Position numbers and translations under genes: made by a program | The notes under the pieces: model-generated | Database searches by the model: none | What the model was told of the DNA's origin: nothing | Seen by the model: only the letters and a program-made list of their open reading frames with translations | In this document: positions 59,171 through 62,525 of the stretch, piece after piece | Numbering within the stretch: the first letter of the stretch is position 1 | Layout of the letters: each line of letters opens with the position of its first letter | NCBI GenBank assembly: GCA_001784175.1 | Contig: MFPR01000011.1 | Location: 19,091 to 83,090, forward strand | DNA: 64,000 nucleotides | Direction of reading: 5' to 3' | Source: Candidatus Lindowbacteria bacterium RIFCSPLOWO2_12_FULL_62_27 | Lineage (GTDB): Bacteria; Lindowbacteria; 2-12-FULL-62-27

Positions 59171-62100
59171 GGTCAAGCTACTTAGAGTGCATGGTGGATG
59201 CCTTGGCATCAGGAGGCGATGAAGGACGCGGCAAGCTGCGATAAGCGACGGGGAGAGGCAAACACTCCGTGATCCGTCGATGTCCGAATGGGGGAACCCA
59301 ACCGCTTCGGCGGTTATTCCCCGCTGAATACATAGGCGGGGTAAAGCCAACCCGGGGAATTGAAACATCTCAGTACCCGGTGGAAAAGAAAGCGAAGCGA
59401 TTCCGTCAGTAGTGGCGAGCGAACGCGGAAGAGCCCAAACCGTTTTTGTGTCAAGCCCGATGGCGTTGCAGAAACGGTGTTGCAGGAGCGAGGTTGAGGG
59501 CCCATCGGGGTCCTCGGAGAGTTACAAACCAAACGGTTAGCCAAACACCTCTGGAAAGGGTGGCGGCACAGGGTGATAGCCCCGTAGGCGAAAACCGATT
59601 TGGCTCTCTGGCCTTGTTTCCTGAGTAGCATGGGACACGTGGAATCCCATGTGAAACCGGGGGGACCACCCTCCAAGGCTAAATACTCCCTGATGACCGA
59701 TAGTGAACCAGTACCGTGAGGGAAAGGTGAAAAGAACCGGGGAACCGGAGTGAAATAGGACCTGAAACCGTGCACTTACCATCAGTCGGAGCCTGGCCGC
59801 AAGGCTGGGTGACGGCGTACCTTTTGCATAATGGCTCTGCGAGTTGCGTCTCGGAAGCAAGGCGAAGGCTAAATCACGCCGAAGCCGAAGCGAAAGCGAG
59901 TCCGAACAGGGCGAATGAGTTTCCGGGAGCAGACCCGAAACCCGTCGATCTATTCATGGACAGGATGAAGTTCGCTTAACAGCGGATGGAGGTCCGGACC
60001 CACCATGGTTGAAAACATGGGGGATGAGCTGTGAATAGGAGTGAAAGGCTAACCAAGGCGGGTGATAGCTGGTTCTCTCCGAAATAGCTTTAGGGCTAGC
60101 CTCAAGACCATGGCGCCGGGGTAGAGCACTGGATGGATGCGGGCCCTTACAAGGGTACCTAGTCCAACCAAACTCCGAATACGGCGTTTGTATCTTGGGA
60201 GTCAGACAGCGGGGGATAAGCTTCGTTGTCGAAAGGGGAACAGCCCACATCGTCGGCTAAGGTCCCCAAATTCGTGCTAAGTGGTAAAGGCAGTGGGGCC
60301 GCACAGACAGCCAGGAGGTTGGCTTAGAAGCAGCCATCCTTTAAAGAGTGCGTAACAGCTCACTGGTCAAGCGTGCCCTGCACCGAAGATGTCCGGGGCT
60401 CAAGCACGATACCGAGGCCACGGGTTCAGTCGACAGCTTGCTGTTGAATGAGCGGTAGGAGAGCGTTGTTGCTGCAGCGAAGGTCAAGCGAAAGCGCGGC
60501 TGGAGCGGCAACAAGCGAGAATGCAGAGATAAGTAGCGATAAGGCAGGTGAGAATCCTGCCCGCCGATAGCCTAAGGTTTCCTGTGCAATGTAAGTCAGC
60601 GCAGGGTTAGCCGGCCCCTAACGCGAGGCCGAGAGGCGTAGCGGATGGGTATCCTGTTAATATTCAGGAGCCACGGCGATGGAGGTTCGAGGTGACTGAG
60701 AAGAGTAGGTGATGCGCAGGGATGGTCGTCTGCGTCGACGCCTGCAGTCCCGTCGCAAGACGGGGCGAGGGGCGGAGGGACTGGGCGGGGCAACCCGTTT
60801 GGGAAGTCACCGATCTCACGCTTGCAGGAAATAACCTCAAAACCGTTGAAGTCGTCGTGACCGTACCACAAACCGACACAGGTAGGCAAGGCGAGAAGCC
60901 TGAGGCGCGCGAGTGAACCCTCGTTAAGGAACTCGGCAAAATAGCCCCGTAACTTCGGGAGAAGGGGTGCCCGGGAGGGTGATGGGACGGCGCAAGTCGC
61001 TCCCTGAGCTTTCCCAGGTCACAGCAAAGAGGCTCTAGCGACTGTTTAACAAAAACACAGGACTCTGCAAAGTCGTGAAGACGACGTATAGGGTCTGACG
61101 CCTGCCCGGTGCCGGAAGGTTAAGGAAGGGGGTCATTCTCCGCAAGGAGAAGAAGCTCTCGACCGAAGCCCCGGTAAACGGCGGCCGTAACTATAACGGT
61201 CCTAAGGTAGCGAAATTCCTTGTCGGGTAAGTTCCGACCTGCACGAATGGCGTAACGACTGGAGCGGTGTCTCGACGAGGGACTCGGCGAAATTGTAGCG
61301 GCGGTGAAGATGCCACCCACCCGTGGATGGACGGAAAGACCCCGTGAACCTTTACTATACCTTGGCATTGGATTTTGGCGCTGCGTGTAGAGGATAGGTG
61401 GGAGGCTTTGAACCGGCGGCGCTAGCTGTCGGGGAGCCACTCTTGGAATACCACCCTCGTAGCGCTAGGGTTCTAACCGCGGTCCGTTATCCGGATCCGG
61501 AACAGTGTCAGGCGGGTAGTTTGGCTGGGGCGGCTGCCTCCTAAAAGGTAACGGAGGAGCCCAAAGGTGCCCTCAGATGGATTGGAAACCCATCGCAGAG
61601 TGTAAAGGCATAAGGGCGCTTGACTGTGAGACCAACAAGTCGAACAGGGACGAAAGTCGGGCTTAGTGATCCGGTGGTTCTGTGTGGAAGGGCCATCGCT
61701 CATCGGACAAAAGGTACTCCGGGGATAACAGGCTGATCTCCCCCAAGAGCTCACATCGACGGGGAGGTTTGGCACCTCGATGTCGGCTCATCGCATCCTG
61801 GGGCTGAAGAAGGTCCCAAGGGTCTGGCTGTTCGCCAGTTAAAGCGGTACGCGAGCTGGGTTCAGAACGTCGTGAGACAGTAGAAGTGACCGTTGCTGTC
61901 TTTAAATCTGGCTATTTGCTGGAAAATCTGTCCCCTCACAGGGGTGCAGAATCTCGTGCTACGGATATTGCTTGGCTCATCCTTATGTGATAGTCGGGCG
62001 TATGCGTGACAAAGCATGAGTGCAGACAATCAGCAGGAAAGGCCGGATGCTTATGTCAAGCATCTGGAATCCTCAACGACTATACGCCAGATCCGCCATA

Positions 62101-62525
62101 AGCGGAAAGATATAGTCTGAACTGCATGGCGACATGCAGAGTCCGGCGGAAACGCCGGGCCGCCTCGATTTTAACGGATTGAGGTCAGCGCCGGGTTCGG
62201 CGCGTCAAAGTAACAGAATTGTCGGTCCCTATCCGCCACGGGCGCAGGAGACTTGAGAGGAGTTGACCCTAGTACGAGAGGACCGGGTCGAACGTACCGC
62301 TCGTGTACCAGTTGTCACGCCAGTGGCACCGCTGGGTAGCGATGTACGGTCGGGATAACCGCTGAAAGCATCTAAGTGGGAAGCCCCCCTCAAGACTATG
62401 TCTCCCCCCTTCCCTTCGGGGAAGGGCTGAAGGCCCCTGGAAGATCACCAGGTTGATAGGCGACAGGTGCAAGACCCGTGAGGGTTTTAGCCGAGTCGTA
62501 CTAATCGGCCGTGCGGCTTGACCAA
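59171..62525 (+). rRNA. rrl: 23S ribosomal RNA, interrupted by a group I intron
   Basis: GGTCAAGC at 59171 pairs with GCTTGACC at 62516-62523, defining the terminal helix. The exons are 59171-61881 and 62222-62525, about 3015 nt after splicing. Domain V core strings are canonical (GTAACTATAACGGTCCTAAG, GGGATAACAGGCTGATC) and the sarcin-ricin loop AGTACGAGAGGACC lies in exon 2. Joining the exons restores GACAGTTCGGTCCC exactly. A GC-rich expansion around 60730-60790 also lengthens the gene relative to E. coli. Confidence 0.96.
61882..62221 (+). ncRNA. Group I self-splicing intron in 23S rRNA (340 nt, no ORF)
   Basis: The 5' exon end GACAGT pairs with the internal guide GCTGTC (61895-61900), giving P1 with the required U-G at the splice site. 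GACCG (61888-61892) pairs with the 3' exon CGGTC (62223-62227) as P10. Other helices: P3 61906-61912/62086-62092 (ATCTGGC/GCCAGAT), P4 61917-61921/62031-62035 (TGCTG/CAGCA), P6 62043-62052/62058-62067, P7 62078-62084/62111-62117 (GACTATA/TATAGTC) and P8 62093-62096/62102-62105. P9-series hairpins carry GCGA and GAAA tetraloops (62122-62139, 62143-62158), with two more after them. The core strings AATCAGCAGGA, CAACGACTATA and AAGATATAGTC are the classical Q, R and S elements. The last base is G (omega-G). No homing endonuclease gene is present. Confidence 0.95.

What the first reader, a model, noticed from the sequence alone, without database searches (positions are those of the whole stretch)
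61882..62221. ORF-less group I intron in the 23S peptidyl-transferase loop, next to A2602
The sequence shows every helix of a group I ribozyme (P1, P3, P4, P6, P7, P8, P9 series, P10), the Q/R/S core strings, a U-G splice site and a terminal G. Splicing would restore the canonical GACAGT|TCGGTCC. By counting from the conserved A2602 in GAGACAGUU, the site is after U2604 of E. coli 23S. Bacterial 23S introns I know of (Thermotoga, Coxiella, Simkania) cluster near 1917-1951; the I-CreI intron of Chlamydomonas chloroplasts is at 2593, 11 nt away. I do not recall a bacterial intron at 2604. The host cannot assemble a normal peptidyl-transferase centre unless it is removed, so if this operon is the only copy, growth depends on the ribozyme.
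Basis: partly seen in the sequence, partly recalled or inferred. Interest (0 to 1): 0.93.

Follow-up and report, generated by a model that had tools for sequence, protein, structure and literature searches.

The report
ORF-less group I intron, 23S site 2604
[quoted passage not shown] it is real and must be spliced out, but it belongs to a family already reported at the same site in CPR bacteria and found here in several other phyla.

Summary
Positions 61882-62221 (340 nt) match Rfam RF00028 (62.9 bits, gathering 50, E 3e-14). The insertion falls exactly after E. coli 23S U2604. Two genomes of the same family, and a distant one, carry the uninterrupted sequence. P1 (U-G at the splice site), P3, P4, P7, P8, P9 and P10 all form. 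In 44 introns from the same site, every P3 and P7 position scored pairs in all sequences, with compensatory changes. The assembly holds one 16S and one 23S gene, so splicing is probably essential.

The novelty claim does not hold. Group I introns at 2604 were reported in CPR bacteria in 2024 (PMC11270868). My scans gave about 50 more, in Omnitrophota, CPR, Acidobacteria, Actinomycetota, Chloroflexi, Armatimonadetes and Elusimicrobia. Many carry a LAGLIDADG endonuclease gene in the P6 loop. The window's intron lacks it but keeps a 34-codon remnant with its start codon. Its core sits, weakly supported, among Omnitrophota introns, while the host 23S groups with its own phylum. Best reading: a horizontally acquired intron that lost its endonuclease. 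New member of a known kind; splicing itself was not tested.

The parts
59171..62525 (+). 23S rRNA gene interrupted by the intron (5' exon 59171-61881, 3' exon 62222-62525)
   Evidence: RF02541 2699.6 bits, model 1-2925; only 23S in the assembly
61882..62221 (+). group I intron, 340 nt, site L2604, ORF-less
   Evidence: RF00028 62.9 bits; insertion after E. coli 2604; intron-less alleles
61876..61900 (+). P1: 5' exon GACAGU (61876-61881) with internal guide GCUGUC (61895-61900), U-G at the 5' splice site
   Evidence: (44 of 44 same-site introns pair, invariant)
61888..61892 (+). P10 intron strand GACCG, pairs with 3' exon CGGUC 62223-62227
61906..61912 (+). P3 5' strand AUCUGGC (3' strand GCCAGAU 62086-62092)
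   Evidence: 6 pairs scored, all standard in 44/44; 5 vary, all with compensatory changes
61917..61921 (+). P4 5' strand UGCUG (3' strand CAGCA 62031-62035)
61927..62026 (+). P5 and its extension (proximal UCUG:CAGA), about 90 nt of variable region
   Evidence: inference; hairpins
62035..62073 (+). P6/P6a hairpin; relatives carry the LAGLIDADG ORF in this loop
62016..62120 (+). 34-codon open remnant MSADNQQERPDAYVKHLESSTTIRQIRHKRKDIV matching both ends of the endonuclease ORF of relatives (MSADNQQERP ... HLESSETIRQ)
62076..62083 (+). P7 5' strand (A, bulged C, GACUAU), guanosine-binding site; 3' strand AUAGUCU 62112-62118
   Evidence: 44/44 pair, including a G-C to A-U change with the bulge changed from A to C in the window and L135
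62093..62105 (+). P8 hairpin CCGC-CAUAA-GCGG
62122..62203 (+). P9 (GCGA tetraloop), P9.1 (GAAA tetraloop), P9.2, P9.3 hairpins
57255..62747 (+). rRNA operon: 16S, tRNA-Ala(TGC), tRNA-Ile(GAT), 23S with intron, 5S

Best explanation
[quoted passage not shown] It folds into the standard group I core, uses exogenous guanosine to cut after the U of the U-G pair in P1, then joins GACAGU to UCGGUC with P10 holding the 3' exon, restoring the peptidyl-transferase loop. It belongs to an inter-phylum family of L2604 introns, many of which encode a single-domain LAGLIDADG homing endonuclease in P6. This copy was most likely acquired horizontally from, or from the same source as, Omnitrophota-type introns, and later lost the endonuclease, so it is now vertically inherited and cannot be retained in the rRNA. 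Shown: sequence, structure, site, family, empty sites. Inferred: splicing activity, transfer, endonuclease loss.
For: RF00028 above gathering; exact L2604; empty sites in two same-family genomes and a distant one; covariation in P3, P4 and P7 across 44 same-site introns; about 50 relatives at the same site, all ending in G before the 3' exon except one with an unresolved end; LAGLIDADG_1 in relatives at E down to 4e-26; no LAGLIDADG_1 in the host genome; start codon and frame remnant; intron core nearest to Omnitrophota (89% over 136 columns) while the exons group with G001 at 100/100.
Against: No RNA data, so splicing is not shown. The intron-tree placement among Omnitrophota rests on 136 columns with weak support (85/77 and 89/77, no starred set). 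Best similarity is mosaic: the 5' part matches Omnitrophota L043 44/44, the 3' part best matches a CPR intron (L129, 77% over 151 nt). The remnant frame overlaps conserved core RNA, so frame retention is weak evidence for deletion.
Confidence: 0.93

Rival explanations
1. A degenerate group I intron that no longer splices; the rRNA is fragmented or the insert is cut out by RNases like an intervening sequence.
For: Bacterial 23S genes often hold RNase III-processed insertions (PMC11270868). No RNA evidence here.
Against: All core helices are intact with compensatory changes; P1, P10 and the terminal G are kept; the site lies in the peptidyl-transferase loop, where a break or retained insert would be expected to be lethal; one 23S gene in the assembly.
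Confidence: 0.05
2. Assembly or binning artefact: the intron-bearing 23S comes from another organism or is a chimera.
For: The host is a multi-contig assembly of unstated origin; such bins can mix rRNA contigs, and L100 here looks like such a case.
Against: The operon lies in a contig of 83 kb with genes on both sides; the 5' exon is 98% identical to a same-family genome that lacks the intron, with no divergence jump at the junction.
Confidence: 0.02
3. The intron was inherited vertically in the host phylum and lost in its two relatives, rather than gained recently (a rival to the transfer step only).
For: Only three genomes of the phylum are held, so loss cannot be excluded.
Against: Both relatives have empty sites; the intron core nests among Omnitrophota introns.
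Confidence: 0.2

Closest known systems
Group I introns at 23S position 2604 (23IS13) of CPR bacteria, Tsurumaki et al. 2024, PMC11270868
   Same: Same insertion site; group I; that paper reports ORF-bearing and ORF-less insertions side by side and LAGLIDADG_1 at 2604
   Different: Host here has a 4.4 Mb genome and belongs to a phylum of which three genomes are held; only one intron in the gene
L2604 introns of Omnitrophota
   Same: Same site, same P1/P10; 44-nt 5' segment identical to L043, core 89% identical to L156
   Different: Most carry a LAGLIDADG ORF of about 175 aa; P7 has a bulged A with a G-C pair where the window has a bulged C with an A-U pair
I-CreI-type and archaeal IA3 introns at LSU 2593 (Nawrocki et al. 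2018, PMC6125680)
   Same: Peptidyl-transferase region, group I, rRNA host
   Different: 11 nt away; subtype of the window intron not tested
Bacterial 23S introns at 1917-1952 (Thermotoga, Coxiella, Simkania; from general knowledge and PMC11270868)
   Different: Other insertion sites
T-even phage introns (Escherichia phage EC128, class III ribonucleotide reductase gene)
   Same: 33 nt identical over J8/7, P7 3' strand and P9, 62107-62139
   Different: Protein-coding host gene; similarity limited to that core segment

Membership tests
Group I intron (RF00028) | covariance model score above gathering | tested here: met
   62.9 vs 50 bits, E 3e-14
Group I intron (RF00028) | conserved core P3-P8 and P4-P6 with P7 guanosine site | tested here: met
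   P3, P4 and P7 covary in 44 sequences
Group I intron (RF00028) | U-G at 5' splice site, terminal G, P10 | tested here: met
Group I intron (RF00028) | guanosine-initiated self-splicing | not testable with these tools
   needs RNA
L2604 (23IS13) bacterial intron family | insertion exactly after E. coli 2604 | tested here: met
L2604 (23IS13) bacterial intron family | core sequence homology to other introns at the site | tested here: met
Mobile homing intron (active) | encodes a homing endonuclease, in the intron or elsewhere in the genome | tested here: not met
   no ORF; no LAGLIDADG_1 in the genome; other endonuclease families were not searched
Subgroup IA3 | match to an IA3-specific model | not tested
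   subtype models not available; no P2 and no insertion between P7 and P3 seen by eye

The most novel reading that the evidence does not exclude
L2604 introns are a bacteria-wide mobile family that jumps between phyla; this one moved recently from Omnitrophota into the sole rRNA operon of a large-genome bacterium of a rarely sampled phylum, then lost its endonuclease, leaving an immobile but obligatory ribozyme in the peptidyl-transferase loop.
Probability: 0.5. Interest if true: 0.4.

Novelty: new member of a known kind. Interest (0 to 1): 0.3.

Why it matters
It shows that peptidyl-transferase-centre introns at 2604 are not a peculiarity of CPR bacteria but occur in at least six other named phyla and in this poorly sampled one, and it gives a compact, endonuclease-free example in a single-operon host where ribosome formation must depend on ribozyme splicing. 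It also means that 23S-based surveys can misread or miss such genes. It does not change any mechanism.

Tried and rejected
Similar-DNA search in phages gave only a 33-nt core match to a T4-like phage intron. A first multiple alignment of all introns by MAFFT was too gappy to use, so anchored core motifs were used. L100, binned as Hinthialibacteria, has exons like Doudnabacteria and is treated as likely contamination. The host phylum could not be named with these tools. A chance explanation was rejected on covariance score, folding energy and covariation.

Full report
Observation. The window holds a 16S, tRNA-Ala, tRNA-Ile, 23S, 5S operon on the plus strand. The 23S model aligns over its full length, and the Rfam group I intron model scores 62.9 bits (gathering 50, E 3e-14) near the 3' end. 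Against an E. coli 23S gene of 2904 nt, the extra 340 nt lie exactly after position 2604, in the sequence GAGACAGU|UCGG, where A2602 is the A of CAG.

Boundaries. Two genomes of the same family (G001, G002) and an unrelated one (G011) have uninterrupted GAGACAGTTCGGTCC; query positions 382 and 723 become neighbours there, which gives the same exon ends as the ribozyme model. In G002 only 35 nt of 5' exon are on the contig.

Structure. The intron with short flanks folds 6.3 standard deviations better than shuffles. The helices are P1 GACAGU:GCUGUC ending in U-G, P3 AUCUGGC:GCCAGAU, P4 UGCUG:CAGCA, P6 with a P6a hairpin, P7 with a bulged C, P8, P9 with a GCGA loop, three further P9 hairpins, and P10 GACCG:CGGUC. 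In 44 same-site introns with a common spacing, the six P3 pairs scored are standard in 44/44, five of them varying (for example T-A, C-G and A-T at one position); P7 is standard in 44/44. The window and L135 alone change the pair next to the P7 bulge from G-C to A-U, together with the bulged base from A to C. Such coupled changes are what a working ribozyme core should show. The motif anchors include the P3 3' strand consensus with up to 6 mismatches, so the percentage is slightly favoured; the compensatory types are not explained by that.

Copy number. The assembly (4,388,164 bases, 44 contigs, 94% complete) gives one 23S and one 16S match and one RF00028 match. ORFs flank the operon on both sides: a 361-codon ORF at 62781-63866 starts about 30 nt after the 5S, and ORFs that look like gltX and rpiA (by eye) lie upstream. 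Collapse of several operons is therefore unlikely, though the window ends at the contig end. Hence splicing is probably required for growth (inference).

Relatives and novelty. Tsurumaki et al. 2024 (PMC11270868) report rRNA insertions of CPR bacteria at 23S positions 1917, 1931, 1952, 2593, 2604 and 2657 with LAGLIDADG_1, and say that those at 23IS13 (which by their numbering is 2604) had not been reported in known bacteria. Named hosts are Omnitrophota, several CPR groups, Acidobacteria (L079), Actinomycetota (L066, L086, L107, L118, L119), Chloroflexi (L053), Armatimonadetes (L073) and Elusimicrobia/Endomicrobiales (L077, L110, L113). Bins can be contaminated, so single cases are less sure than the pattern. 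In a diverse sample of 386 genomes the site was occupied in two, the window's and G521; a third match, G499, was an intron-less gene. The site is thus rarely occupied but in many phyla.

Endonuclease. More than half of the relatives are 600-900 nt long, most with an ORF of about 140-205 aa in the P6 loop; three tested are LAGLIDADG_1 at E 4e-24 to 4e-26, and one tested is similar to solved homing endonucleases. ORF ends overlap the intron core: MGADNQQERP at P4/P6 and LESSETIRQ at P6/P7. The window intron has ATG in the same place and an open frame MSADNQQERPDAYVKHLESSTTIRQ..., 34 codons, with the middle gone. Most other ORF-less introns lack the ATG or the frame. This fits deletion of the endonuclease, but the RNA core is conserved anyway and frame retention alone has one chance in three. 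No LAGLIDADG_1 was found elsewhere in the genome.

Origin. The intron core tree (136 columns) puts the window among Omnitrophota introns (nearest L043, L158, L156, L148), support 85/77 and 89/77; the exon tree joins the host with G001 at 100/100 and not with any of those. Identity to G001 shows no step at the junction. The reading is horizontal acquisition, moderately supported.

Verdict. Real, well supported, functionally important for the host if splicing is as inferred, but a further member of a known family at a known site.

Noticed in passing
L009 1455-1763 minus; also L005, L006, L007: RF00028 matches above gathering lie inside genes that ARAGORN reads as tRNA-Asn(GTT) with 214-254 nt introns in the anticodon loop, in four genomes including a relative of the host. 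The papers checked name Leu, Ile, Arg, Gly, Lys and fMet as group I hosts, not Asn.
   Followed up: partly
L014 1415-1735 minus; L011 1381-1692 minus: The two same-family genomes carry group I introns in tRNA-Leu(TAA), which the window's genome seems to lack.
   Followed up: partly
L010 (G011), about 1461-1938: 478-nt insertion after E. coli 23S position 1923, with a group I match below gathering.
   Followed up: no
window 62107-62139: 33 nt identical to the intron of the class III ribonucleotide reductase gene of Escherichia phage EC128 (J8/7, P7 3' strand, P9); the bulged C of P7 also differs from nearly all same-site relatives.
   Followed up: partly
L100: Contig binned as Hinthialibacteria OLB16 has 23S exons (TTGGTCCTTATC) like Doudnabacteria, probably a mis-binned CPR contig.
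   Followed up: partly
window 59442-59532: 23S has insertions of 27 and 52 nt after E. coli positions 274 and 286.
   Followed up: no
G308, G467, G158 and other Omnitrophota genomes: Several genomes show two sets of matches to the intron core about 1-2 kb apart, suggesting a second related intron at another 23S site.
   Followed up: no
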